From Lentzea sp. NEAU-D7 (lineage in GTDB: Bacteria > Actinomycetota > Actinomycetes > Mycobacteriales > Pseudonocardiaceae): a DNA stretch of 64,000 nt. The position numbers were made by a program, and so were the translations under genes. Positions 8,315 to 44,067 of this stretch are shown here, one piece after another (position 1 is the stretch's first letter; every line of letters starts with the position of its first letter). The stretch covers positions 134,796 through 198,795 of the forward strand of contig NZ_JAPJDL010000003.1 in NCBI RefSeq assembly GCF_026242055.1, written 5' to 3'. The notes under the pieces were generated by a model. That model was not told the DNA's origin. It did no database searches and saw only the letters and a list, made by a program, of their open reading frames with translations.

Positions 8315-10168
8315 TCAGCTCAGATAGCGGACCTGCCTGGCCTTGCCCTCCAGCACTTCCTCGCGCGCCGCCGCGATCTCCTGCCGGTGCGACACCTCGG
8401 GCACACCGACCTCCCACCAGGCTCCGGCCTCGGTCCACGACGAAGGGTGCGTGCGGATCACGACGACGGCAGGGCGTTTCTCGGTGACCACGGCCTCGCG
8501 GGCCTTGCGGTAAGCGCCTTCCAGGTCGGCCAGCGAGTCGGCGGGGAAGACCGCGCAGCCCATCGCCGCGGCGTGGGCGGCGAAGTCCGTGCGCGGGGGT
8601 TCGGCGTGGCCTGTCGCGCAGTCGGCGTAGAGGTTGTTGAAGCCCGCGCCGCCCTGGCCCGTCTGCAGGCGGTGGATCACCGCGTACCCGTCGTTGTCGC
8701 AGACGACGGCCACGAAGCCGTGGCCCGCGAAGGCGGCGGAGAAGAGCTCGGAGTTCAGCATCAGGTACGAGCCGTCGCCGAGCAGGGTCGTGACGACGCC
8801 CTGGGTGTGGGCGATCGCGGCGCCCCAGGCACCGGCCAGTTCGTAACCCATGCAGGAGAAGCCGTACTCGACGTCCATCGTGGACTCGCCGGTGGCCCGC
8901 CAGCCGCCGATCAGCTCGCCGGGCAGGCCGCCGGACGCCGTCATGACGTAGTCGGTGGGCCCGCTGACGTCGTTGACCACGCCCACCACCTGCGCGTACG
9001 TCGGCAGGCCACCGCCGGGGGCGCGCAGCGAGGTGATGTGGGCGTCCCACTTCGTGCGTTCCGCCAGTGCCCGCGCCGCCCAGGAGGCCGGGGCCTGCCA
9101 GGACGCCAGCAGGTCGGTCAGTTCGCGCAGGCCCTCGTCGGCGTCGGCCACGAGGGCGAACGAGCCGTGCTTCACGGCGTCGAAGCGGGCCGCGTTCAGG
9201 GAGAGCAGGTGCGCGTCCGGGGAGAAGACCGTCCAGGACGCGGTGGTGAAGTCCTGCAGGCGGGTGCCCACGGCGATGACCAGGTCCGCCTCGCCGGCCA
9301 GGACGTTCGCCGAGGTCGAGCCGGTGATGCCCAGCGGGCCCGCGTGCAGCGGGTGGTCGTGCGGGACCAGCGTCCGGCCCGCCGTCGTCTCGACGACCGG
9401 GATGGCGTGCTGCTCGGCGAAGCGGAGGGCGCGGCCCGCGGCGCCCGAGTAGCGGACGCCGCCGCCCAGGACCAGCAGCGGGCGGGAGGCGTTGCGGATC
9501 GCCGAGGCGGCCTCGGCCAGGGCGAGCAGGTCCGGGCGCTGGCGCAGCGGGCGGTGGACCACGGGGGCGAACAGGGCCTCCGGGAAGTCGTACGACTCCG
9601 CCTGGACGTCCTGGGGCAGGGCCAGCGTCACCGGGCCGCAGTCGGCCGGGTCGGTCAGGACCCTGGCCACCTGCGGCAACGTCGAGAGCAGCTGTTCGGG
9701 GCGGGTGATGCGGTCGAAGTAGCGGCTGACCGCGCGGAACGCGTCGTTCACCGTCGCGGTCGGGTCGTGGAAGTGCTCCACCTGCTGGAGAACGGGGTCC
9801 GGGGCGCGGCCGGTGAAGGTGTCGCCCGGCAGGAGCAGCAGCGGCAGGCGGTTGGCGTGGGCCACGCCGGCCGCGGTGACCATGTTCAGCGCGCCGGGAC
9901 CGATGGACGACGTGGCGACGCCCACCTGGCGGCGGTGGGTGGCCTTGCCGATGCCGACGGCGGCCAGGGCCATGCCCTGCTCGTTGTGGCCCCGCCACAC
10001 CGGTAGCCGGTCGCGGACCTCCTCCAGGGCGTTGCCCAGGCCGAGGACGTTGCCGTGGCCGAAGATCGCGAACACTCCGGGGAACAGCGGCGCGACGGTT
10101 CCGTCGAAGAGCTCGGTGCGCTGGGCCAGCATCCAGCGGACCAGCGCCTGCGCGGTCGTGAGCTTCAC
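8315..10168 (-). CDS. iolD: 3D-(3,5/4)-trihydroxycyclohexane-1,2-dione hydrolase (IolD)
   Basis: This 617-residue thiamine-diphosphate enzyme opens the inositol-derived ring, giving 5-deoxy-glucuronate. The acetolactate-synthase-like layout is complete: an N-terminal PYR domain (GHNEQGMALAAVGIGKATHRRQ), a central domain (LVLGGGVRYSGAAGRAL), and a C-terminal PP domain with the GDGSYLMLNSEL diphosphate/Mg motif. The GTG start at 10168 overlaps the iolB stop (GTGA). It is the last gene of the inositol operon. Its length matches the family. Confidence 0.95.
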   Translation of the reverse strand: MKLTTAQALVRWMLAQRTELFDGTVAPLFPGVFAIFGHGNVLGLGNALEEVRDRLPVWRGHNEQGMALAAVGIGKATHRRQVGVATSSIGPGALNMVTAAGVAHANRLPLLLLPGDTFTGRAPDPVLQQVEHFHDPTATVNDAFRAVSRYFDRITRPEQLLSTLPQVARVLTDPADCGPVTLALPQDVQAESYDFPEALFAPVVHRPLRQRPDLLALAEAASAIRNASRPLLVLGGGVRYSGAAGRALRFAEQHAIPVVETTAGRTLVPHDHPLHAGPLGITGSTSANVLAGEADLVIAVGTRLQDFTTASWTVFSPDAHLLSLNAARFDAVKHGSFALVADADEGLRELTDLLASWQAPASWAARALAERTKWDAHITSLRAPGGGLPTYAQVVGVVNDVSGPTDYVMTASGGLPGELIGGWRATGESTMDVEYGFSCMGYELAGAWGAAIAHTQGVVTTLLGDGSYLMLNSELFSAAFAGHGFVAVVCDNDGYAVIHRLQTGQGGAGFNNLYADCATGHAEPPRTDFAAHAAAMGCAVFPADSLADLEGAYRKAREAVVTEKRPAVVVIRTHPSSWTEAGAWWEVGVPEVSHRQEIAAAREEVLEGKARQVRYLS

Positions 10169-32480: not shown

Positions 32481-32843
32481 TCATGCCATCCGGCACTTCG
32501 AGAGCTGCAGCGGGTTCCCGTTGAGGTAGTCGAAGCCCTCGGACTGTTCCTGCCCCTGGCAGATGATCTCGTCGCCCACGGCCACCTCGTCGCGCACCTT
32601 CGACTCGTCGGTGAAGTCGTCCGGCTCCACGAAGGCACCTTCGAACGACCTCGGCCGGGGTGCGCCGGCGGGCAGGTCGCCCACGACGTCGAGGTAGACG
32701 CGGGTGGCGCAGATGACGTCGCTGTAGCCGTCGTAGCAGGTGTTGATGCTGGTGACCTCGAAGCGGATCTCGCCTTCCCAGCGGCCGAGCCCGCAGCCGG
32801 TCAGCACCAGACAGGCCGCGAGCGCCGAGATGATCTTGCGCAT
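32481..32843 (-). CDS. Small lipoprotein (paralogue of the preceding gene)
   Basis: This 120-residue lipoprotein has a signal MRKIISALAACLVLTGC and Cys17 as the lipid anchor. The mature sequence begins GLGRWEGEIRFEVTSINTCYDG, which matches the FEGDVRFKVT of the upstream gene, so the two are diverged duplicates. Both have a V(A/G)VGDE(I/V)(I/V)C segment and a C-terminal Cys (KCRMA), suggesting a disulfide-bonded beta domain. The ATG overlaps the previous stop by 1 bp (TGATG). Function is unknown. Confidence 0.75.
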   Translation of the reverse strand: MRKIISALAACLVLTGCGLGRWEGEIRFEVTSINTCYDGYSDVICATRVYLDVVGDLPAGAPRPRSFEGAFVEPDDFTDESKVRDEVAVGDEIICQGQEQSEGFDYLNGNPLQLSKCRMA

Positions 32844-33145
32844 CAAGCCTTTTTGCAGTTCGTGGTCTGGGAGCGGGTCGAGATGTGCTTCTCGTTGACC
32901 CGTTCCTGGACGACGTGGCACACCACCTCGTCGCCGACCGCGACGGGTTCCGCGAACTCCCTGGCGAGAACGCGGCCCGAGTACCAGTCACTGACCATGT
33001 CCACCGGCTGCTGCTGTGCCAGAACGAGCTCGTAGCCCTCGGAGTCCGCCTTGGTGACCTTGAACCTGACGTCGCCCTCGAAACGCTTGTCACCACAGGC
33101 GGTCAGCGCGAGGCAGCTCAGCAAGACGGCGGCGAGCTTGCGCAT
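32843..33145 (-). CDS. Small lipoprotein (paralogue of the following gene)
   Basis: This 100-residue lipoprotein has a signal MRKLAAVLLSCLALTAC with lipobox LTAC. The mature part (GDKRFEGDVRFKVT, then PVAVGDEVVCHVV and a C-terminal NCKKA) parallels the adjacent 120-residue protein. Overlaps of 1 bp on each side (TGATG) couple it to the MDMPI-fold gene upstream and the paralogue downstream. Probably both are surface proteins made together. No family is recognised. Confidence 0.75.
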   Translation of the reverse strand: MRKLAAVLLSCLALTACGDKRFEGDVRFKVTKADSEGYELVLAQQQPVDMVSDWYSGRVLAREFAEPVAVGDEVVCHVVQERVNEKHISTRSQTTNCKKA

Positions 33146-33900
33146 CAGTGCCCCCGTCCGACCTGCAGGACGTCCAGCACGCGCTGATCGCCGGTCATCT
33201 CCTTGAAGTTCATCCTGTTCCAGAGCCAGAAGTAGACGACCTCGGCCTCACCGGTCACCTGCGCGTCGCCCTCTTCACCGGGGGCCGCGGCACGGAGTTC
33301 GGGCACCTCGCCCGCTGTCAGGGAGATCAGCCACGACTCCGGCACGTCGGTGGGACGCACCGACGCGGTGCCGGTCACGGTGCTCGGCACGTCGCCGTCG
33401 AGGTTGGCCGCGACGATCGTGCTCAGCACCTCGTCGATGCCGTCGGCGCAGAGGTCGGCGTCCGTCGCCACGACCTGGCGGACGACCGTCTGCGCGTCGA
33501 ACCGGCGCAGCACCGTCTCGTGCGCGATCCGGCGGTGCCACACCCAGGCCAGATCGGGCGCGGCCGGTGAGAACGTCCACACCGGGCGGTTTCCCGGCAC
33601 GGCCGTGAGGATCTCCGCGGCCGCGGTCAGCTGCAGGTCGAGGTACTGCAGCGGCGCCAGCCCGGCAGGCGGGGGCGACGGCCGCATCGCGGTGCGGCTG
33701 CCGGTGCGCAGGTACGCGGTGGAGGTCTCCAGGAAGCGCGCGAGGTGGATCACGAGGTCCTGCACGGTCCAGCCAGGACGTGTCGGCACCTCGGCGGCCG
33801 GGTCCGCGTCCGCCACCGCCTTGCGGAACAACTCCGCCTGTTCGATGAACACAGCGGTCCACCGCTGGGCCGTCCACCCTGTCTGCACCATGAACGACAT
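33145..33900 (-). CDS. Maleylpyruvate isomerase-fold (MDMPI) protein
   Basis: This 251-residue protein has the N-terminal mycothiol-dependent maleylpyruvate isomerase domain (about 1-140): RPGWTVQDLVIHLARFLE carries the conserved His, and WVWHRRIAHETVLRRFDAQ the second. These are the metal-ligand positions of the DinB-like fold. The C-terminal domain (about 160-250) has the beta strands DVPSTVTGTASVRPT and VTGEAEVVYFWLWNR. Mycothiol is the main low-molecular-weight thiol of actinomycetes, so a thiol-transfer role is plausible, but the substrate is unknown. It is the first gene of a coupled three-gene operon with two lipoproteins. Confidence 0.85.
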   Translation of the reverse strand: MSFMVQTGWTAQRWTAVFIEQAELFRKAVADADPAAEVPTRPGWTVQDLVIHLARFLETSTAYLRTGSRTAMRPSPPPAGLAPLQYLDLQLTAAAEILTAVPGNRPVWTFSPAAPDLAWVWHRRIAHETVLRRFDAQTVVRQVVATDADLCADGIDEVLSTIVAANLDGDVPSTVTGTASVRPTDVPESWLISLTAGEVPELRAAAPGEEGDAQVTGEAEVVYFWLWNRMNFKEMTGDQRVLDVLQVGRGH

Positions 33901-33985
33901 CGTGCCCGAAACGCTCCACTGACGAGAGTGGAACCGGCCATCATGTATCTGCGTCGCAGTGATCGGTGACCAACAGGGGGTGGCG

Positions 33986-34309
33986 ATGTTCGGCGTTGAG
34001 CCAGAGCTGCTGCGCACCGCGTCCAAGGAGTTCGGCAACGGCTCCGACGCGGTGCGCGAGGCAGCGGAGATGATCTCGATGCTCCAGCTCGACGCGAGTG
34101 CGTTCGGGGAGGTCGACGCCGCCGCGGAGTTCGCGGACGCGCTGTCGAAGTTCGTCGGCACGCACTCCCAGGACCTGCAGCGCGGTTCCTCCTGGTTCAC
34201 CGACGCGGCAGAGGGTCTCGTGTCGAACGCCGAGGCCTACCAGCGCATCGACGAGGACCACGCGGCAGCGCTGAAGAAGCTCTTCTCGGGACTGGGGGGC
34301 GGTCAGTGA
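33986..34309 (+). CDS. EspC-like ESX (type VII) secretion substrate
   Basis: This 107-residue all-helical protein matches the EspC/DUF2580 family: MFGVEPELLRTASKEFGNGS, a long second helix, and near the C-terminus AYQRIDEDHAAALKKLF. It contains a YxxxD type VII export signal (YQRID). GTG/ATG choices exist; ATG 33986 follows a good GGGGGTGGCG sequence. It overlaps the hydrolase gene downstream by 4 bp, so the two probably form a substrate pair that folds and exports together. It is divergent from the MDMPI operon. Confidence 0.85.
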   Translation: MFGVEPELLRTASKEFGNGSDAVREAAEMISMLQLDASAFGEVDAAAEFADALSKFVGTHSQDLQRGSSWFTDAAEGLVSNAEAYQRIDEDHAAALKKLFSGLGGGQ

Positions 34310-36276
34310 GCTACACGGATCCCGAGAGCCTGTACGGCAGGCTCGCGTCCGGTGATGTCGGCCGGATCGCTGCGGCCGCGGACCCGATCACCGGTGCGAT
34401 CAGCGCGGTCGGCCGGGCGGGCGAGTTCGTCACGAACGGTGGCAAGACCGCCGTCAGCGACTGGACCGGTGACGCCGCGACGAAGTTCACCGCGCGCGCC
34501 CAGTTGTCCGCCACCGCCGCCAAGGCCGCCGCCGAACGACTCGGCGCGGGCGTCGACATCCTCCAGGCCGCTTCGCGTGCCTACGGCCAGATGCGGGGCG
34601 CGGCGGACCAGGCGATCGGCGTGTGGCGCGGTCGGCCGCCAGGCATGGACGAGGAACAGACCCGTCAGCTCGCCAACCAGGTCAACCAGCACCTGGACAA
34701 GGTGAAGTCGGGTTACGACAACGTTCTGCGCTCCTACGCGAGTGCGCTGACCAGGATCCCGCCCGGCTTCGAGGAGTCGGCGCGCACGGACTCCGGCTGG
34801 AGCCGTGCCGCCCAGCGCGGAGGTGCGGCCGGTGCGCTGCCGCCGGTGCCGCCGCCCGGCTCCGACCCGAAGGCCGTCGCGGACTGGTGGAAGTCGCTCA
34901 GCAAGGACCAGCAGGAAGCGCTCAAGAACACGAAGTACCAGGAGCTCGGCCAGCTCCGCGGCCTTCCCGCCGACGTGCTGGACGAAGCGAACCGCAAGCG
35001 GATCCCGGAGGACGCGGCGCGGTTCAACGCGGAGAAGGACCAGCTCAAGCAGCAGCTGGCCGACCGTGCCCGCGAGCTGGGCGTCGATCCGAACTCGGCA
35101 GAGGGTCAGCGCGCTCTGCGCAACGACGCCCAGGGCTCGCAGCTGATGTCGCAGTACGACGAGGCGGCACGGCGCGCGAAGAACGCGGATGACGCGGTGG
35201 GCGCGCTGGACAAGGCCGGCCAGTTGAGCGCGGAGAGCGGCAAGAAGGCGTACGTGCTCGCGTGGAGCCCTGATGGCGCCGGCGCCAAGGAAGGCGCGAT
35301 CGCCGTCGCGTTCGGCAACCCGGACACCGCGAAGAACGTCGCGGTGTGCGTGCCCGGCACCACGTCCACGCTCAGCAGCTTCGGCCTGGACCAGGCCGCG
35401 AACCTCAGCACGGAGATGGGTCCGGACGGCGCCGCGATCCAGTGGCTCGGCTACGACGCGCCGGAGTTCCTGCCCGGCCAGGTGAACGACCCGGAACAGG
35501 CCCGCGAGGGTGGCGCGATCCTCGCGAAGGACGTCGAGGGCTACCGCACCACCAACCCGAACGCCCACGTCACGGTGATCGGCCACAGCTACGGCAGCAC
35601 GGTCGTCGGCTACTCGGCCATGGACAACGGCCTGAAGGCGGACGACATCGTGTTCGTCGGCTCGCCGGGTGTCGGCGCGTCCAACGTCGACCAGCTGTCG
35701 GCGGGCGCCGGGCACGTCTACGTCGGTGGCACGGAACACGACCCGGTCATCCAGGCGACGAGTGGTGACTGGTTCACCAAGGACGGGTCGTCGACCGGTC
35801 CCTACGACTCCTCGTTCGGTGGCAAGACGTTCGGCACGTCCGGTGAGTCCTGGATCGGCCACGCCCACTCGTCGTACTACGACAAGGGCACCGAGTCGCT
35901 CAGCAACATCGCGAAGATCGCCAACGGTGACGGCGGCAGCGTCACCGAGCAGCGCTGGCAGGACGCTCCGACGCCGCGTGAGGTGCCCGGTTCGGACATC
36001 CCCGGTGTCGGGCCGGTCATCGACTGGGGCGTCAACACCGGCAAGGAGGTCGTCGACATGGGCGAGGACGTCTGGCGCGGTGGCGGTCAGGTCGTGGACG
36101 ACATCTCGAACGGCCGCTGGGGTGACGCGGCCGGGCACGCGGTGGACACCGTGGGCGAGGTCGCGAGCGACGCCGGCGACGTCGTGGTCGACACGATCGG
36201 CAACGCGGTGGAGCTCGGGCGCGACGCCGTCGAGGGTGTCGGCGGCGCGATCAAGACGATCGGGTCGTGGTTCTAG
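34306..36276 (+). CDS. ESX-associated alpha/beta hydrolase (DUF1023 family)
   Basis: This 656-residue protein opens with a WXG100-like helical region (about 1-150; WTGDAATKFTARAQLSATAAKAAAERL). A proline-rich hinge with PPVPPPGSDP follows, then the family hallmark WWKSLSKDQQEALKNTKYQELG and an alpha/beta hydrolase core. The nucleophile elbow is GHSYGS with Ser428. The C-terminal tail of about 130 residues is Gly/Val/Asp-rich and repetitive (GDAAGHAVDTVGEVASDAGDV). It is likely an ESX-exported hydrolase or toxin-like enzyme, possibly acting on a lipid or peptide, carried by the EspC-like partner. The 3' end overlaps the convergent sterol-carrier gene by 4 bp. Confidence 0.88.
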   Translation: MSYTDPESLYGRLASGDVGRIAAAADPITGAISAVGRAGEFVTNGGKTAVSDWTGDAATKFTARAQLSATAAKAAAERLGAGVDILQAASRAYGQMRGAADQAIGVWRGRPPGMDEEQTRQLANQVNQHLDKVKSGYDNVLRSYASALTRIPPGFEESARTDSGWSRAAQRGGAAGALPPVPPPGSDPKAVADWWKSLSKDQQEALKNTKYQELGQLRGLPADVLDEANRKRIPEDAARFNAEKDQLKQQLADRARELGVDPNSAEGQRALRNDAQGSQLMSQYDEAARRAKNADDAVGALDKAGQLSAESGKKAYVLAWSPDGAGAKEGAIAVAFGNPDTAKNVAVCVPGTTSTLSSFGLDQAANLSTEMGPDGAAIQWLGYDAPEFLPGQVNDPEQAREGGAILAKDVEGYRTTNPNAHVTVIGHSYGSTVVGYSAMDNGLKADDIVFVGSPGVGASNVDQLSAGAGHVYVGGTEHDPVIQATSGDWFTKDGSSTGPYDSSFGGKTFGTSGESWIGHAHSSYYDKGTESLSNIAKIANGDGGSVTEQRWQDAPTPREVPGSDIPGVGPVIDWGVNTGKEVVDMGEDVWRGGGQVVDDISNGRWGDAAGHAVDTVGEVASDAGDVVVDTIGNAVELGRDAVEGVGGAIKTIGSWF

Positions 36277-36659
36277 AACCTCACGACCGGCAGCAGGGGT
36301 GAGAGGTCGGCCCGGGTTCCGGAGGCGGTGACCCGGGCTCCGTCCAGCGCGTCGGTCCAGTCGAGCGCGCCGGTGGCCAGTTCGAGCCACGTGCGGGCGT
36401 CCGTCTCCACGACGTTCGGGGGCGTGCCGCGCGTGTGCCTCGGCCCTTCGACGCACTGCACGGCCGCGAACGGGGGAACGCGCACCTCGACGCTGCGGCC
36501 GGGCGCGATCTGTTCGAGCGTGCGCAGGCTCAGGCGGACGGCGGCGGCGAGCACAGAGCGTTCTGGCTGGTCAGCCTCACCGCGCAACCATGGGACCACC
36601 GCCTGCACGGCGGCTCGCATCTCGGCTGGGTCGACGGCTTTGGCTGGCACGCCACCCAC
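36273..36659 (-). CDS. Sterol carrier (SCP2-like) family protein
   Basis: This 128-residue protein fits the actinobacterial sterol-carrier-family group that accompanies purine genes: RSVEVRVPPFAAVQCVEGPRHTRGTPPNVVETDARTWLELATG, then LDGARVTASGTRADLSPLLPVVRF. It is a small lipid-binding fold, and its ligand is unknown. GTG 36659 or 36650 could be the start. Its presence here, between the EspC/hydrolase pair and the EccC-like pair, looks like a remnant of the conserved pur synteny rather than part of the ESX set. Confidence 0.75.
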   Translation of the reverse strand: MGGVPAKAVDPAEMRAAVQAVVPWLRGEADQPERSVLAAAVRLSLRTLEQIAPGRSVEVRVPPFAAVQCVEGPRHTRGTPPNVVETDARTWLELATGALDWTDALDGARVTASGTRADLSPLLPVVRF

Positions 36660-36710: not shown

Positions 36711-38204
36711 GTGATCAGGAACTTCGCCGTCGTCGGTCCCGGGCAGGCGACCAGGGAACGGCTGACGGCGGCTCTGGCGGCGGCACCGGACATCTCGGTC
36801 TACCGGATCGGGCGCGGCGCGGACCCGCTGCCCGTGTCCGCGACCTTCGACCCGGCGGACGAGCCGGGGTGCCGCAGCGTGCTGGACTGGTTCGAGCGCG
36901 GTGCGCCGTCGGGCGCCGTGCTGCTCATGGACGACTGGGAGCTGTGCTCCGGTCTCGACCCGGCGCTGGACAGGACAGTCGAGTGGATCGCCGCCTTCGG
37001 GCCGGCGCGCGGCGTGCAGGTCGTCGTCACAGCCAGGAAGTGGTCGGAGGTGCCCGACCGGCTGCGGCGGCACCTGCACGGCGAAGCTACGGACTTCCTG
37101 GCGCTGCACGGCATCGAACCCGATCTGAGCAACAAGTACCAGCGCCACGACCTGAAGGCCGCCATCGGCTCGAACGCACGCGGCTGGCCCGTCTACCGCG
37201 ACGGCGCCGTCCCCGTCAGCGCGTGCATCGGCCCGGCCGCGGAACGCGAGCAGCAGCTGCTCAGCGCGTTGCTGGGCCTCATGGTCACGCACTCGTCGCA
37301 GGACCTGAACTTCGGCCTCTTCGACATGAAGAACGTCGGCGTGTTCGACGGCCTGGACGCGGCACCGCACGTGGCGTTCACGCTCACCGGAGAAGCCGGC
37401 GACGAGATGCTCGAGCGGTTCCACGACGGCCTCGTCGGCGAGCTCGGCCGCCGGCAGCAGCTCCTCCAGTCGGGCGAACGGTTTCCGGCCCTGCTGGTCT
37501 GCGTGGACAGCGCCGAGGTGCTCGTCGAACGGATCCCCGGCTACGAGCGGGTCCTGGAGTCCCTCACCCGCGCCGGGCGCGAGCTCGGCGTCCACCTGCT
37601 CTGCTCCGGCGACGCACCGCCTGCCTTCCTGCGGCCCCCGGTCCCCGCCTGGCCGGCCGCGGAGCCGCCGTACGACCTCGAGGAGTGGGCCGAGGTCCTG
37701 CCGCCGGCACTGGCCGGATCGTGCCCGCCCGCACACGAGATCGCGCTGCCACCGCTGCACGAGTCCTCAGTGGACCTCAAGCTGGAGATGCTGCCGCCAG
37801 GTGCCATCGGCCTGCTGGACAAGCCCTTCGGGCAACGGCGCGACGTGCTGGTCCCCGCGTTCACCGAGGAGCTCCGCCACGGCGCCATCGTCGGCGGGCC
37901 GGGCACCGGCAAGAGCACGACGCTGCGCACCCTCGCCGGCGTGCTCGGTGATCCGGGCCGCTACCAGCTCCTCGACGGCCCCGGCGAGCCCCTCGACCCG
38001 CAACGCCACGTCGTCGTGACCGCCCGCAGCTGGGACCAGGTGCCGCCGTTCATCAGGAACAGCCTGGGCTTCGCCGTCGAGTTCCGCCTGGACGACCCCG
38101 CCACGTCCCTCGTCGACGCCCGCGAGGCCGCCCGCGTGCCGGACCGGCCCGGTTTCGGCCTCTCCGTGCCCGACCGCCTCCACGCGCGGATCGCGCTCCC
38201 GTGA
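36711..38204 (+). CDS. EccC-like miniaturised ATPase, first of two
   Basis: This 497-residue protein reads as three shortened EccC/FtsK segments. Residues 1-125 resemble the end of an EccC domain (GAVLLMDDWELCSG, VQVVVTARKWSEVPDRLRRHL). Residues 160-290 match domain 2, but its Walker A is replaced by IGPAAEREQQ, while FGLFDMKNVGVFDGLDAAPHVA and LLVCVDSAEVL (Asp266) remain. Residues 365-497 match domain 3 (LLDKPFGQRRDVLVPAF) with an intact Walker A, GGPGTGKS at 395-402 (Lys401), but the Walker B region is deleted and the chain jumps to HVVVTARSW. It overlaps the second protein by 4 bp. It is possibly a regulatory or degenerate ESX motor; no transmembrane helix is visible. Confidence 0.75.
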   Translation: MIRNFAVVGPGQATRERLTAALAAAPDISVYRIGRGADPLPVSATFDPADEPGCRSVLDWFERGAPSGAVLLMDDWELCSGLDPALDRTVEWIAAFGPARGVQVVVTARKWSEVPDRLRRHLHGEATDFLALHGIEPDLSNKYQRHDLKAAIGSNARGWPVYRDGAVPVSACIGPAAEREQQLLSALLGLMVTHSSQDLNFGLFDMKNVGVFDGLDAAPHVAFTLTGEAGDEMLERFHDGLVGELGRRQQLLQSGERFPALLVCVDSAEVLVERIPGYERVLESLTRAGRELGVHLLCSGDAPPAFLRPPVPAWPAAEPPYDLEEWAEVLPPALAGSCPPAHEIALPPLHESSVDLKLEMLPPGAIGLLDKPFGQRRDVLVPAFTEELRHGAIVGGPGTGKSTTLRTLAGVLGDPGRYQLLDGPGEPLDPQRHVVVTARSWDQVPPFIRNSLGFAVEFRLDDPATSLVDAREAARVPDRPGFGLSVPDRLHARIALP

Positions 38205-39889
38205 ACCACCTCGCCCTCATCGGGCCGCCCGGCCTCGTCACGCGCCGGATGGCTGCGACGCAGGGGATCTACCGCATCGGGCGGGGTGAGGCGGCCGGTG
38301 TCGCGGTGAGCTTCGAACCCGGCGACGAGCGGCGGCGGCAGAACCTGCTGGCGTGGTTCGAACGGGGTGCCGAGCCCGGCGCTACGTTGCTGGTCGACGA
38401 CTGGAAGTACTGCAGCGCGGAGGATCCCGGGCTGGCCGAGTCGGTGCGGTGGATCGCCGCGGCGGCGTGGAACGTGCGGGTGGTCATCACCGCGAGGTCG
38501 CTCGAAGAGCTGCCGGAGCGGGTGCCGCTGCGCGTCGAGGTGCTGGACTTCCTGGCGCTGCACGGGCTGCGGCGGTTCACCAAGGCGCTCGCGTGGAAGG
38601 GGCGGTGGTGGAAGGTCCCCGCGGGTGTCGACTCGAACGGCGTGCCTGTCGTCGTGGAGCTGACGCACTTCGCCGACGGGAAGTGGCGCACGGGATCACA
38701 TCTGAGCGTCACCTCGCCGGACGCGTTCCGCGGTGTGGTGCTGGGTCTGATGGCCACGCACTCGCCCAAGTTGTTCCAGGCGATGTTCATCGACGCGCAC
38801 GACTCGGACGTGTTCGACGGGCTCGACCAGGCCCCGCACGTCGTGGCTCGTCATCGTCACGCGGCCCGGGATCCGCGGAAGATCGCGGACCTGCTCCTCG
38901 CGGAGTCGGAGCGCCGGCTCGACGTCGTCGGCAACACCTGGACGATCTTCGACCACCGGGCCTTCGACCAGGTGCTGCCGCAGCTCCTGGTGTGCGTCAG
39001 CGGATTCGCTGACATCGGAGAGGCCGCGTTCGCCGCCATCGCGGCGGACGTCGGCAAGTCCGGGATGCAACTCCTGCTCGACGGTCCGAGCGAGTTGGCG
39101 AACCGGCTGGTCGACGACTGCGCGGCGCCCGCGAACCTCGACGAGATGGCGAGGTCGCTGCCGCTGCTGATGCACGAGGACGAACCCGCACCGGACTTCT
39201 TCGCCCTGCACGAGATGCCGAACAGGCACGTGTGGAAACCACGCCCCGTCAGGTTGCAGTACCGGGTTCCGGTCGGGGTGGACGAGTACGGGCAGCCGGT
39301 CGAGATCGACCTGAAGTCCAAGCACCTGCAGGACGGAATGGGGCCGCACGGCGACGTGGTCGCGCCGGAGGGACGACGGGCGGAAGCCGTCCGCGCACTG
39401 GTCCTCGGCCAGATGCTGCGGCACTCACCGGACGAGCTCCAGGTCGTCCTCATCGACTTCCACGGCAACGGCGTGTTCGCGGGCCTGGACGGCGCGCCGC
39501 ACGTGCGGCACGGCATCGTGGACCTGCTGGAGGACCACGAACAGCGTGCCCGGACGTTGGCGCACAACAACTTCCGGAACATCTGGGACTACCGCGCCGC
39601 CGGGCTCGTCCTGCCCGAGCTGCTGGTCTGCGTCGACGGTGTGCACGGGCTCCTGCGGGAACGCCCGGAGTTCAGCGAGGTCCTGCAGACCCTGGCCACG
39701 GCGGGGCGCACCTACGGCCAGCACCTGCTGCTGTCCGACACGACACCGGGCGAGCACTCGTCGTACCGCCTGGAGCTGACCGAACAGGGCTGGACGCGGC
39801 GCATCGGGAGGTCGGTGGAGAGGCTCGTGCTCCCCACCGACCTCAACGACGTGGCGTGGTCCCTGCCGGTGGCGATGGCTAGCTCATGA
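38201..39889 (+). CDS. EccC-like pseudo-ATPase, second of two
   Basis: This 562-residue protein is a paralogue of the preceding one at its N-terminus (YRIGRGEAAGVAVSFEPGDERRRQNLLAWFERGAEPGATLLVDDW, compared in parts). It then has two EccC-like domains. The last (about 360-520) tracks domain 1 closely: YRVPVGVDEYGQPVEIDLK, GMGPHGDVV, VRALVLGQMLRHSPDELQ, LIDFHGNGVFAGLDGAPHV and LLVCVDGVHGLL (Asp479). But the Walker A that should follow GMGPHG is APEGRRAE (388-395), lacking Gly and Lys, and the Walker B Glu is missing (DG, not DE). So it should not hydrolyse ATP by the normal mechanism. The stop overlaps the convergent pectate-lyase-like gene by 6 bp. Confidence 0.75.
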   Translation: MNHLALIGPPGLVTRRMAATQGIYRIGRGEAAGVAVSFEPGDERRRQNLLAWFERGAEPGATLLVDDWKYCSAEDPGLAESVRWIAAAAWNVRVVITARSLEELPERVPLRVEVLDFLALHGLRRFTKALAWKGRWWKVPAGVDSNGVPVVVELTHFADGKWRTGSHLSVTSPDAFRGVVLGLMATHSPKLFQAMFIDAHDSDVFDGLDQAPHVVARHRHAARDPRKIADLLLAESERRLDVVGNTWTIFDHRAFDQVLPQLLVCVSGFADIGEAAFAAIAADVGKSGMQLLLDGPSELANRLVDDCAAPANLDEMARSLPLLMHEDEPAPDFFALHEMPNRHVWKPRPVRLQYRVPVGVDEYGQPVEIDLKSKHLQDGMGPHGDVVAPEGRRAEAVRALVLGQMLRHSPDELQVVLIDFHGNGVFAGLDGAPHVRHGIVDLLEDHEQRARTLAHNNFRNIWDYRAAGLVLPELLVCVDGVHGLLRERPEFSEVLQTLATAGRTYGQHLLLSDTTPGEHSSYRLELTEQGWTRRIGRSVERLVLPTDLNDVAWSLPVAMASS

Positions 39890-41583: not shown

Positions 41584-42390
41584 TCAGACGCCCGCGGAAC
41601 GGACCGCTTCGGAGATCAGCTCGTCGACCTGGTGCATCATCCGGCGCGCGTCGGTCGGCGTGAACGTGCTCCACGGCGGCTGGCCGTTTGAAGCACGGCG
41701 TTGCTGCAGGTAGCGGCCCTCTTCGGTGTCGAAGAACGCCACCACGCGCTCGGGGCGCCAGCGCTTGCCGTACTTGTCGCGGGCGGCCGCGCCGAAGTTC
41801 CCGGTGTGCACGAGCCCGGTGAACATCTTCACCAGCGCCTTCGCGTCGTCCTCGCGCAGCCCGACGCCGCGGAACGCGGCCTCCATCGACTTCGGCGAGC
41901 CGTCGGTCTGCGCGATCGCCTTCTCGATGTCCGCGCTCGGCAGCGTCACCGAGAGACCCGTCCCGGCGGGGTGTGCGGGCAGCACCGACAGCACCGCCGA
42001 GGCGAGCCCGGAGCCCGCCCACGGCTGGAACGTCAGCCGGTCGTCCCGCAGCGTCGCCAGCGCGCCCTGGTCGCCGTTCGCCACGGCGAGGACGCGCAGG
42101 CTGTGGCCGAGCCAGAGGCGGCCGTCCGCCTCCCGCTCGGGCTTCACGAACATGCGCAGGAGCCCGTCCAGTTCGGACGAGAGCCCGCGCGAGTTGCCGA
42201 GGCGCCGGTGGTCCAACTGCTGGTAGACGCGGTTCTCGAGCTGCACGCGCTCGTCCCGCGTCTTACCGGGCGTGGGAACTTTCAGGATGAGCGGCATGGG
42301 GCCGACGTTCATGCGTTCCCACAGCACGTCGAACTCCTCGGCGGAGAGAGTGATCGGTTCTCTCTCCGCCGCAGCGCCGAACAGGCTCAC
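41584..42390 (-). CDS. espG: ESX secretion-associated chaperone EspG
   Basis: This 268-residue protein matches the EspG family, which binds PE-PPE dimers in the cytosol and keeps them soluble for type VII export. It opens ITLSAEEFDVLWERMNVGPMPLILKV and continues through WLGHSLRVLAVANGDQGALATLRDDRLTFQPW and GTGLSVTLPSADIEKAIAQTDGSPKSMEAAFRGVGL, typical of actinomycete EspG. The C-terminus RRMMHQVDELISEAVRSAGV is helical. Its start overlaps the PPE-like gene stop by 4 bp, making the classic PE/PPE/EspG order. Confidence 0.87.
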   Translation of the reverse strand: MSLFGAAAEREPITLSAEEFDVLWERMNVGPMPLILKVPTPGKTRDERVQLENRVYQQLDHRRLGNSRGLSSELDGLLRMFVKPEREADGRLWLGHSLRVLAVANGDQGALATLRDDRLTFQPWAGSGLASAVLSVLPAHPAGTGLSVTLPSADIEKAIAQTDGSPKSMEAAFRGVGLREDDAKALVKMFTGLVHTGNFGAAARDKYGKRWRPERVVAFFDTEEGRYLQQRRASNGQPPWSTFTPTDARRMMHQVDELISEAVRSAGV

Positions 42391-43676
42391 TCCGACAGGC
42401 CACCGATGACCGGTGGCGCGACCATGCGCTCGTCGCCGAACACGTCGTCGGTCTCGACCAGGTAGTCGGCCGCCTTGTGCTCGATGTCGTCCTCGCCCTC
42501 GCCCCGCTGGCCGTGCGCGCCACCACCGGCACCGACACCGGCCGCACCGGCCTTGCCCGCACCGGCGCCGGCGCCCGTGCCCGCGGCACCGCCGCGCAGC
42601 GCGTCAGGACCGGAACCCAGGCCGGACATGCCACCGGGCATCCCGCCGGGCTTCATCGCGGCCTGCTGGCCGGCCGCGCCGAGCGAGCCGGACATCGGCC
42701 CGAACGCCTTGCCGGCTCCGGAACCGAGCTGACCACCGCGAACGCCGGTGGAACCGCCCTGGCCCTTGGGACCGTTGGGGCCGCCCGTCCCGCCGCCGGT
42801 GCCGCCCTGGCCGGGCCGGGTGAACACCGGGCCACCGGGGACCGGCGTCGGCGTGGGGGTCGGAGTCGGCTGCGGCAGGCTCGTGGGAGGCGGGGTGTAC
42901 GTGGGGGGAGGCGTCGTCGTCGGAGGCTGCGTCCACGACGTGTGCGTCGTGTCGGTGGGCGGCGGCGTCCAGCCGGTCGAGACCTGCTGGTTCGACGTCG
43001 TCGGCGTGCCGGACCACGACGGGGTCGTCGTGCCGTGGCCGGTCGGCCCGTCGAAGCCGGTCGGCGTGAAGCCGACGCGCGTGCTGCCGGTACCCGTGTC
43101 GCCGGGAGGCGGCGTGTCGATCACGACCTGCGGCGGCGTCGGGAACTCGCCGAGCGTCGAGGAGTTCCAGCGGCTGTCCGACTGGTAGTCCTCCATGACC
43201 TTGACGGCCTGGGCGGCGGCGTTGTCCGCCGCGGCTTCCTGCCGCTCGTGGTCCTGCTGCTGGCCGATGACGTGGGCCATGCCGAGCGGACCGGTCAGCG
43301 CGCCACCGGCGTAGTCGAGGAAGCCGGGCTTCTCGGTCGTGACGGGGACGACCTCGGGCATCTTCTTGCGCGCCTCGGCGATGTACTCGCCCTGCAGACG
43401 CGCGGAGCTCTCCATGGTCGTCGCGCCGGTCTCGGCGAAACCGGCCCACTCGGCCAGCGGCGACAGCGCGCCCTGGGCGGCGTCGGCGGCGTCGGACTCC
43501 CAGTCCGCGCCCATCTTGGTCAGACCGGCGTGCAGGTCGGCGTCGATCTGGGCGAGCGTCGCGGCGATCTGCTTCCAGCCCTGTTCGACCGGGATGGAGG
43601 CGGCGACGCCGGGACCTGAGTTGATCATCTTGTACAGCTCGGGGTGGGCGTACCCCTGGAAGCGGTGTTCGGTCAT
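42387..43676 (-). CDS. PPE-like ESX substrate with Pro/Thr-rich tail
   Basis: This 429-residue protein has a helical N-terminal PPE-like domain (1-160): YAHPELYKMINSGPGVAASIPVEQGWKQIAATLAQID, the WxS-containing ADWESDAADAAQ hairpin, and a charged helix. A disordered Pro/Thr/Gly/Ser-rich stretch follows (about 180-300, TPPPTYTPPPTSLPQPTPTPT), then a Gly/Ala-rich region. The C-terminus EDDIEHKAADYLVETDDVFGDE is acidic and conserved in related proteins. It partners the PE-like protein encoded 16 bp upstream and overlaps espG by 4 bp. The long tail may cross or sit in the cell wall. Confidence 0.85.
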   Translation of the reverse strand: MTEHRFQGYAHPELYKMINSGPGVAASIPVEQGWKQIAATLAQIDADLHAGLTKMGADWESDAADAAQGALSPLAEWAGFAETGATTMESSARLQGEYIAEARKKMPEVVPVTTEKPGFLDYAGGALTGPLGMAHVIGQQQDHERQEAAADNAAAQAVKVMEDYQSDSRWNSSTLGEFPTPPQVVIDTPPPGDTGTGSTRVGFTPTGFDGPTGHGTTTPSWSGTPTTSNQQVSTGWTPPPTDTTHTSWTQPPTTTPPPTYTPPPTSLPQPTPTPTPTPVPGGPVFTRPGQGGTGGGTGGPNGPKGQGGSTGVRGGQLGSGAGKAFGPMSGSLGAAGQQAAMKPGGMPGGMSGLGSGPDALRGGAAGTGAGAGAGKAGAAGVGAGGGAHGQRGEGEDDIEHKAADYLVETDDVFGDERMVAPPVIGGLSE

Positions 43677-43692: not shown

Positions 43693-44067
43693 TCAGTCCT
43701 GGTCTCGGAGGTGCTTGCCCCACATGGCGGCGTTGTCGCCCTCGGTCATGCGGTACTGCTCTTCGATCATCTTCAGCTGGTCGATCACGCCGATGAGCTG
43801 CTTCTTGTAGGAGTCGAGCGCGGCCAGGGCCTTCTCCGACGTCTGCTCGTTGAACGCCTTCGACGTCTCACCGCTGATCGGGTCGGCGGCCCAGGGCCTG
43901 GTGGGCAGGTCGTTGACGGCCTGCGTGATCTTGCTGTCGAACTCGGCCAGGGCCTGTTCGAAAGCCTTCCTCGCCTGTGGAATGGCGGACGGGTCCACCT
44001 TCAGCTTGCGCTGCCCGAACTCCGGGGGCGATGAGACGCCTCCACCTCCACCATCCGCGAGAAACAC
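43693..44067 (-). CDS. PE-like ESX substrate
   Basis: This 124-residue helical protein begins with a short Gly-rich segment, then LKVDPSAIPQARKAFEQALAEFDSKI, a hairpin around RPWAADPISGETSKAFNEQ, and a second helix ending LKMIEEQYRMTEGDN. That last part contains a YxxxE export signal (YRMTE), in the position expected for PE or Esx substrates. A GGAGGGT precedes the GTG 44067 start. Together with the PPE-like protein and EspG this forms the usual three-gene exported complex. Confidence 0.8.
   Translation of the reverse strand: MFLADGGGGGVSSPPEFGQRKLKVDPSAIPQARKAFEQALAEFDSKITQAVNDLPTRPWAADPISGETSKAFNEQTSEKALAALDSYKKQLIGVIDQLKMIEEQYRMTEGDNAAMWGKHLRDQD

What the first reader, a model, noticed from the sequence alone, without database searches (positions are those of the whole stretch)
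36711..39889. EccC-like pseudo-motor pair: two coupled, miniaturised type VII ATPases with most Walker A motifs lost
The two overlapping genes follow EccC (ESX motor) closely outside the ATP site: GMGPHG, FAGLDGAPHV, LLVCVD and the domain-3 segment KPFGQRRDVLVPAF. Inside it they are broken. The second protein has APEGRRAE where EccC has its P-loop, and DG in place of the Walker B DE. The first has IGPAAEREQQ in domain 2 and keeps one P-loop (GGPGTGKS) in a domain 3 whose Walker B region is deleted. They share a paralogous N-terminus, are translationally coupled, and have no transmembrane anchor. A non-catalytic EccC mimic could cap, gate or assort substrates for a real EccC, or act as an inhibitor. 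I know of no description of such a pair; this is a candidate new ESX component.
Basis: partly seen in the sequence, partly recalled or inferred. Interest (0 to 1): 0.82.

Follow-up and report, generated by a model that had tools for sequence, protein, structure and literature searches.

The report
Paired inactive relatives of secretion motor
A group of soil bacteria keeps two linked genes copied from the motor of a protein-export machine but stripped of nearly all its engine parts, which suggests that they adjust the real motor rather than drive export themselves.

Summary
The observation largely holds. Two overlapping genes (P1 36711-38204, P2 38201-39889) encode proteins built from EccC ATPase modules. 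By profile P1 = N-terminal half-domain (Walker-B side of D2) + dead D1 + compacted D2; P2 = same N-terminus + two dead D1 copies. No module fits D3 best. They are not decay products: in 24 genomes of the genus (Lentzea) P1 is full-length in 23 and P2 present in 21, at one locus; all 21 pairs overlap by 4 bp; dN/dS is about 0.43. No relative of comparable length was found outside the genus. D1 catalytic motifs are lost in every copy, but P1 keeps the D2 P-loop lysine in 23 of 23, an invariant LLDG where D2 has its Walker B, and an arginine at the D1 R-finger position in 20 of 23. This genome has one EccC above the family cut-off. Best reading: an ATP-binding, non-hydrolysing pseudo-EccC pair that modulates the EccC ring, perhaps for neighbouring PPE/EspC substrates. 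Origin is well supported; function is inferred. In print, S. aureus EssC lacking D3, or with a dead D1, is dominant-negative, so a natural brake is plausible.

The parts
36711..38204 (+). P1: EccC-derived pseudo-ATPase, 497 aa, GTG start, no membrane segment
   Evidence: full-length in 23 of 24 genus genomes
36711..37109 (+). P1 N-terminal half-domain (aa 1-133): Walker-B side of EccC D2, VLL[VM]DDW; most constrained part (dN/dS 0.20)
37110..37640 (+). P1 D1-like domain (aa 134-310), Walker A and B lost, Arg at the R-finger position (R236) in 20 of 23
37797..38201 (+). P1 compacted D2-like domain (aa 363-497): P-loop GGPGTGKS here (Lys in 23 of 23), about 100 D2 residues missing, LLDG (23 of 23) aligned with the D2 Walker B strand
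38201..38204 (+). 4-bp GTGA overlap between P1 stop and P2 start; a 4-bp overlap in 21 of 21 pairs
38201..39889 (+). P2: EccC-derived pseudo-ATPase, 562 aa: shared N-terminal half-domain (aa 1-124) plus two tandem dead D1-like domains
33959..34309 (+). EspC-like small protein, conserved neighbour
   Evidence: Pfam PF10824 E 8.6e-06; found in 24 of 24 loci
34306..36276 (+). alpha/beta-hydrolase (Abhydrolase_8) with a very weak WXG100-like N-terminus; candidate type VII substrate
   Evidence: (WXG100 E 0.089, below cut-off); 24 of 24
36273..36659 (-). gene divergent from P1 (sterol-carrier-like by recall; no family search run on it; start codon chosen by eye)
   Evidence: 24 of 24 loci, and at the same place in one other genus
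41584..42390 (-). EspG-family chaperone
   Evidence: Pfam PF14011 E 4.2e-67; 24 of 24
42387..43676 (-). PPE-like candidate substrate whose divergence co-varies with P2
   Evidence: Pfam PF00823 E 2.7e-05, 24.7 bits against cut-off 26
43693..44067 (-). small WXG100-like partner
   Evidence: E 0.0029, below cut-off; 24 of 24

Best explanation
P1 and P2 are a coupled pair of pseudo-ATPases derived from EccC modules (D1 and D2) in the ancestor of Lentzea. Shown: the relationship, the module order, the loss of D1 catalytic motifs, the conserved P-loop in P1's D2, no module of D3 type, long-term purifying selection, and co-divergence of P1 with P2. Inferred: P1 and P2 form a hetero-oligomer; P1 binds ATP in its D2 without hydrolysing it, as a nucleotide-dependent assembly switch; and the complex docks on the cytosolic D1/D2 rings of this genome's EccC, changing ring assembly or activity, most likely for the PPE/EspG/EspC substrates encoded next door. 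Direction (brake or accessory activator) is open: a dead D1 in a mixed ring should brake, whereas its retained arginine could complete the active site of a neighbouring EccC D1.
For: Domain profiles: P1 D1 to EccC D1 E 1.5e-23; P2 second D1 to D1 7.5e-39; P1 C-domain to D2 8.2e-22; best D3 value among seven module types 0.00081. EccC 4nh0 is the top Foldseek hit for both models (E 9.3e-20 and 1.3e-13). D1 Walker A (GATGSGKS in 24 of 24 genus EccCs) absent in 23 of 23 P1 and 21 of 21 of each P2 copy; DE absent in all of these. P-loop Lys401 invariant in 23 of 23 P1 and LLDG in 23 of 23. Arg at the R-finger position in 20 of 23 P1; position identified because EccC R618 lies 48 residues before the Walker B Asp, as R734 lies before D782 in S. 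aureus EssC (PMC9436818, passages). Coupling 21 of 21. dN/dS 0.43 for both; 0.20 and 0.29 in P1 N- and C-domains. One EccC over cut-off in this genome. P1-P2 partial distance correlation 0.49, 0 of 2000 permutations as high. P2-PPE 0.42, 0 of 1000; P2 shows no such excess with the nearer EspG. Precedent: EssC without D3 or with dead D1 but intact D2 is dominant-negative, and D2 Walker motifs are needed for complex assembly (PMC9436818 section 6).
Against: No direct sign of contact with EccC: P1 and P2 distances follow EccC no more than they follow GH (0.36 and 0.46 against 0.51 and 0.54). The pair is not in the ESX core locus. P1's C-domain is compacted and poorly modelled (block pLDDT 29-58 over aa 351-497; aa 1-50 are 45-56), so ATP binding is uncertain. 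Whole-model TM-scores to EccC are low (0.31 and 0.37 by query). P1's D1 is the least constrained part (dN/dS 0.62). The R-finger column is one of 28 equally retained among 163. Three of 24 genomes lack P2 and one of these keeps only the P1 N-domain, so P2 is not indispensable. The P2-PPE association is one of 45 pairs compared, the permutations ignore phylogeny, and P1 as a whole does not show it (0.06, 286 of 1000). P1's C-domain correlates weakly with EspG instead (0.34, 39 of 1000). Several other genus genomes carry further EccC-like frames, so the single-motor argument holds for this genome only.
Confidence: 0.4

Rival explanations
1. A dedicated brake: the pair is a natural counterpart of the dominant-negative EssC mutants, entering or capping EccC rings through D1/D2 contacts and stopping export until released.
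For: Dead D1, P-loop-bearing D2 and no D3 resembles the variants that poison the S. aureus translocon (PMC9436818 section 6); matched here.
Against: The published mutants keep the membrane anchor and DUF, which the modules found in P1/P2 do not include; P1's D2 is about 100 residues shorter than EccC's, whereas the dominant-negative variants had intact D2.
Confidence: 0.2
2. A stand-alone complex that has left type VII secretion and does something else, such as acting as chaperone or regulator for the neighbouring hydrolase or glycosidase-like genes.
For: Fast divergence (mean distance 0.29 and 0.30 against 0.054 for EccC, 20 genomes); location away from the ESX core; no specific co-divergence with EccC.
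Against: Same position between EspC/Abhydrolase_8 and EspG/PPE clusters in 24 of 24 genomes, one with the P1 N-domain only; P2 co-varies with PPE.
Confidence: 0.25
3. Slow decay of a duplicated EccC fragment with little or no function.
For: Lost catalytic motifs, high rates, P1 reduced to its N-domain in G019, P2 absent in 3 of 24 genomes, D2-like end of P2 absent in 17 of 21.
Against: Open frames of 488-565 aa (P1, 23 genomes) and 544-751 aa (P2, 21 genomes), invariant coupling, dN/dS 0.43, invariant P-loop and N-domain residues.
Confidence: 0.08
4. A split but working soluble motor, like the two-gene EccCa/EccCb arrangement of ESX-1.
For: Two adjacent coupled genes with EccC modules.
Against: No complete Walker A plus DE pair in either protein and no D3-type module; the genome already has a complete EccC.
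Confidence: 0.03

Closest known systems
EccC (type VII/ESX secretion motor), D1 and D2 modules
   Same: Profile homology of the modules; the C-terminal D2-like part of P1 keeps the EccC P-loop and an LLDG where D2 has VIDG
   Different: No D3-type module and no DUF or anchor found; D1 catalytic motifs lost; D2 compacted by about 100 residues; two D1 copies in P2; extra D2 half-domain at the N-terminus
EccCb (soluble half of split EccC, ESX-1; architecture recalled)
   Same: Soluble, part of a two-gene arrangement, contains D2
   Different: EccCb is D2-D3; here no D3-type module, and dead D1s are present
EccC DUF domain (degenerate ATPase domain; PMC11154593, passages)
   Same: ATPase fold whose Walker A has turned into an unrelated sequence (published GEREQVL; P1 has GPAAEREQQ)
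   Different: DUF is part of EccC itself; P1's domain matches D1 far better (E 1.5e-23) than the DUF stretch of EccC (E 2e-4)
Dominant-negative S. aureus EssC variants (PMC9436818, section 6 and passages)
   Same: Dead D1 or missing D3 with a Walker-motif-bearing D2
   Different: Laboratory mutants with membrane anchor and DUF, not natural genes

Membership tests
EccC motor | Homologous FtsK/SpoIIIE-type ATPase modules D1, D2 | tested here: met
   structure hits
EccC motor | Curated EccCa/EccCb score cut-off | tested here: not met
   123 bits against 346.55 and 147.8 against 509.15
EccC motor | Active D1 with Walker A GxxGxGK[S/T] and Walker B DE | tested here: not met
   0 of 23 P1, 0 of 21 in each P2 copy; 24 of 24 genus EccCs have both
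EccC motor | Substrate-signal-binding D3 | tested here: not met
   seven module types compared with D1, D2, D3; each fits D1 or D2 better, best D3 E 0.00081
EccC motor | Transmembrane anchor | tested here: not met
   hydropathy scan only: P1 1.19; P2 1.76 at a predicted strand of a D1-like domain; EccC 2.2
EccCb | D2-D3 architecture with P-loops | tested here: not met
   D2-like part with P-loop in P1 (and a variant P-loop in 4 long P2s); no D3-type module
Regulatory pseudo-ATPase (works like) | Conserved fold with lost catalysis and purifying selection | tested here: met
   P1's C-domain fold is not confidently modelled
Regulatory pseudo-ATPase (works like) | Nucleotide binding without hydrolysis | not testable with these tools
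   P-loop conserved 23 of 23; needs ATP-binding assay
Regulatory pseudo-ATPase (works like) | Physical interaction with the active motor | not testable with these tools
   no complex prediction was run

The most novel reading that the evidence does not exclude
A genus has evolved a built-in regulator of its ESX motor by copying the motor's own ring modules, losing catalysis and the substrate-pocket domain, and keeping one nucleotide-binding site and possibly the arginine that reaches into a neighbour's active site: a mixed pseudo-motor/motor ring in type VII secretion, tuned to a neighbouring PPE-type substrate.
Probability: 0.22. Interest if true: 0.8.

Novelty: new variant of a known kind. 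Interest (0 to 1): 0.55.

Why it matters
How EccC rings are assembled and switched on is an open question: the ESX-3 structure has the ATPase 1 domains about 65 A apart, too far for the R-finger contact (PMC6986878, passages). A natural protein pair made of the same ring modules without catalysis would be a handle on that step, and perhaps a first separate pseudo-motor in type VII secretion. Six answered searches of an open-access library listed no title describing such a pair; I saw listings and starts of abstracts, each listing was limited, and most subscription papers are not held.

Tried and rejected
Decay products: rejected by open frames, invariant coupling and dN/dS. Anti-phage or phage origin: PADLOC gave only mad8 at the P-loop region of P1 (E 3.3e-10) and PHROGs only weak FtsK/SpoIIIE-like or ABC matches. 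Plasmid-borne: no match of the P1 N-domain in 72,556 plasmid records. Co-divergence with EccC: not seen beyond that with GH. Stepwise growth (N-domain only in G019, P1 only in G011 and G017, then P2): attractive, but the flank tree does not place these genomes in that order and has low supports (23-31 on inner nodes), perhaps because flanking alleles recombine; left undecided.

Limits of the counts. One search scored at most 6 candidates per genome, at most 14, so a distant relative could be missed; one search relied on two peptide patterns (79 stretches matched, 21 confirmed). The P1 alignment A1 leaves out G019 (23 of 24); A3 holds 25 chosen N-domains of 45. One search leaves out G019 for every gene and keeps the draft G012, whose purF is broken. 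The 20 genomes are the 24 less G011, G017 and G019 (no P2) and G010 (no GH match); searches also drop G012, whose broken frames distorted (19 kept). One search compared 163 of 248 invariant EccC D1 columns, those present in at least 12 P1 sequences. Profile E-values are for single pairwise comparisons.
Full report
What is there. P1 (36711-38204, +) and P2 (38201-39889, +) are open frames sharing a GTGA overlap. Both hit FtsK_SpoIIIE above Pfam's gathering score (44.4 and 37.8 against 24 bits) and match EccCa/EccCb models far below their cut-offs. By sequence the best solved relative of both is the Thermomonospora curvata EccC chain 4nh0_A (E 3.3e-25 and 4.2e-32; species name).

Anatomy. I compared each module as a profile with D1, D2 and D3 of the 24 genus EccCs. 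P1: the N-domain matches the Walker-B half of D2 (57 columns, E 2.7e-06; D1 0.19, D3 0.073); the middle matches D1 (1.5e-23); the C-terminus matches D2 (8.2e-22). P2: the same N-domain (9.2e-40 to P1's), then two D1-like copies (7.4e-14 and 7.5e-39 to D1; 2.4e-28 to each other). In 4 of 21 genomes P2 is 725-751 aa and ends in a D2-like domain (3.5e-18) whose P-loop lysine is arginine (HGAIVGKPGSGRT, 4 of 4). No module fits D3 best. In a FastTree tree the EccC D1, P1 D1 and the two P2 D1 sets each form their own clade (supports 1.0, 0.997, 0.603, 0.898; midpoint root).

Active sites. All 24 EccCs of the genus have GATGSGKS and ICIDEF in D1. P1 has sequences such as GPAAEREQQ, or a shortened loop, and DS, DT, DG or SG in place of DE (23 of 23); P2 has neither motif in either copy (21 of 21 each). 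In contrast, the D2-type P-loop of P1 has G395, P397, G398, G400, K401 and T403 invariant in 23 of 23. About 100 residues of D2 are missing in P1 (the largest gap 79 columns), but the alignment puts YQLLDGP on the D2 Walker B strand FLVIDGW, and QLLDGPGEP is identical in 23 of 23; neither strand has the catalytic Glu. Because it follows the P-loop helix closely, the same stretch might instead be D2's earlier strand FYCIDLGGG; either way D2 keeps a nucleotide-site remnant without a DE. P1 also keeps an arginine at the position of EccC R618 in 20 of 23 (Gln in G004, G008 and G016); that residue lies 48 residues before the Walker B Asp, as the R-finger R734 proposed for S. aureus EssC lies before D782 (PMC9436818, passages). 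It belongs to 28 of 163 comparably retained columns, so this is suggestive only.

Fold. AlphaFold2 on the genus alignments gives P2 a confident model (pLDDT 85.5, pTM 0.81) and P1 a mixed one (67.4, 0.56; residues 351-497 at 29-58). Foldseek ranks EccC 4nh0 first for both; whole-length TM-scores are low (0.31, 0.37) with rmsd about 16 A over several domains, while FtsK motor domains align over about 190-310 columns at 3-6 A.

Distribution. In 24 genomes of the window's genus P2 is in 21, and P1 is full-length in 23 and reduced to a 127-aa N-domain in G019. G011 and G017 have P1 alone. Outside it: 0 of 232 other family genomes with P1 at E 1e-20 (17 of 249 hit, all own genus). With the N-domain profile at 1e-3, 24 genus genomes and 33 of 273 others hit; the 39 rows from the others cover only 50-76 of 125 profile positions, 31 of them in open frames of over 1,000 codons, as expected of EccCs. 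In an order-wide draw of 298 genomes only 3, all own genus, hit at 1e-6. In another family genus (G038) the 20-kb stretch around the same spot holds unrelated genes between the two flanks (by reading: a dehydratase, an aldolase, a GntR-like regulator; labels recalled) and no match to P1, P2, EspG or PPE at 1e-3; G041 and G026 keep only the EspC/Abhydrolase_8 side in the stretch fetched.

Neighbourhood. EspC-like, Abhydrolase_8 and the divergent small gene on one side, and EspG, PPE, WXG100-like and DUF3558 genes on the other, are found in 24 of 24 loci; the glycosidase-like gene (label recalled) in 23 of 24, missing in G010. The window genome has one EccC above the family cut-off (C31), on another contig; three further places scored weakly and were not examined. 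Several other genus genomes have additional EccC-like frames.

Selection and co-divergence. Median dN/dS is 0.43 for both genes, against 0.09 for purF and purM, 0.16 for EspG, 0.41 for PPE and 0.49 for DUF3558; within P1 it is 0.20 (N), 0.62 (D1) and 0.29 (D2), within P2 0.39, 0.41 and 0.48. Distances of P1 and P2 correlate after removing EccC, purM and GH (0.49; 0 of 2000 permutations, 19 genomes). P2 also correlates with PPE (0.42; 0 of 1000; 0.39-0.47 on leaving out any one genome), more with its tail (0.36-0.37) than its PPE domain (0.22-0.31), and not with EspG, which lies nearer (-0.01 to 0.10). P1 as a whole does not (0.06), though its N-domain does with the tail (0.41), and its C-domain correlates weakly with EspG (0.34, 39 of 1000). 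This is one of 45 pairs and phylogeny is only partly controlled.

Mechanism. Shown: EccC-derived, coupled, catalytically dead in D1, one conserved P-loop, no D3-type module, maintained. Inferred: hetero-oligomer, ATP binding, docking to EccC. The nearest experimental guide is S. aureus EssC, where variants lacking D3 or with D1 Walker mutations but intact D2 inhibit the wild-type translocon, and D2 Walker motifs are required for complex assembly (PMC9436818 section 6). P1 resembles such a variant without the anchor. D2 and D3 of EccC are described as degenerate and regulatory, and the DUF as a nucleotide-free ATPase relic (PMC11154593, passages), so reuse of dead ATPase modules for control is proposed inside EccC; a separate gene pair doing so is what would be new. 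Substrate sorting through the canonical D3 pocket (PMC6954902, passages) is unlikely without D3.

Verdict. A real, conserved pseudo-ATPase pair, found in one genus; not a member of EccC by definition, but built from it. Function unproven.

Noticed in passing
window 32481-33145 (-): Two small tandem lipoprotein-like genes between purF and an MDMPI-like gene (labels recalled); matches in related loci vary from none to four places, suggesting copy-number turnover.
   Followed up: no
window 33145-36276; G003, G006, G012 loci: The MDMPI-like gene and the Abhydrolase_8 gene co-diverge strongly (r 0.92 after controls), with a divergent Abhydrolase_8 allele (64% identity) in G003, G006 and G012, as if this block is exchanged between species.
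   Followed up: partly
L087 about 8624-9007 (G019): P1 ends after its N-terminal half-domain directly before the glycosidase-like gene: either a deletion or a relic of an ancestral single-domain gene.
   Followed up: partly
window 39884-39889: P2 and the convergent glycosidase-like gene overlap by 6 bp at their ends.
   Followed up: no
L084 (G010): The glycosidase-like gene gives no match and about 4 kb of other sequence lies between P2 and EspG in this genome.
   Followed up: no
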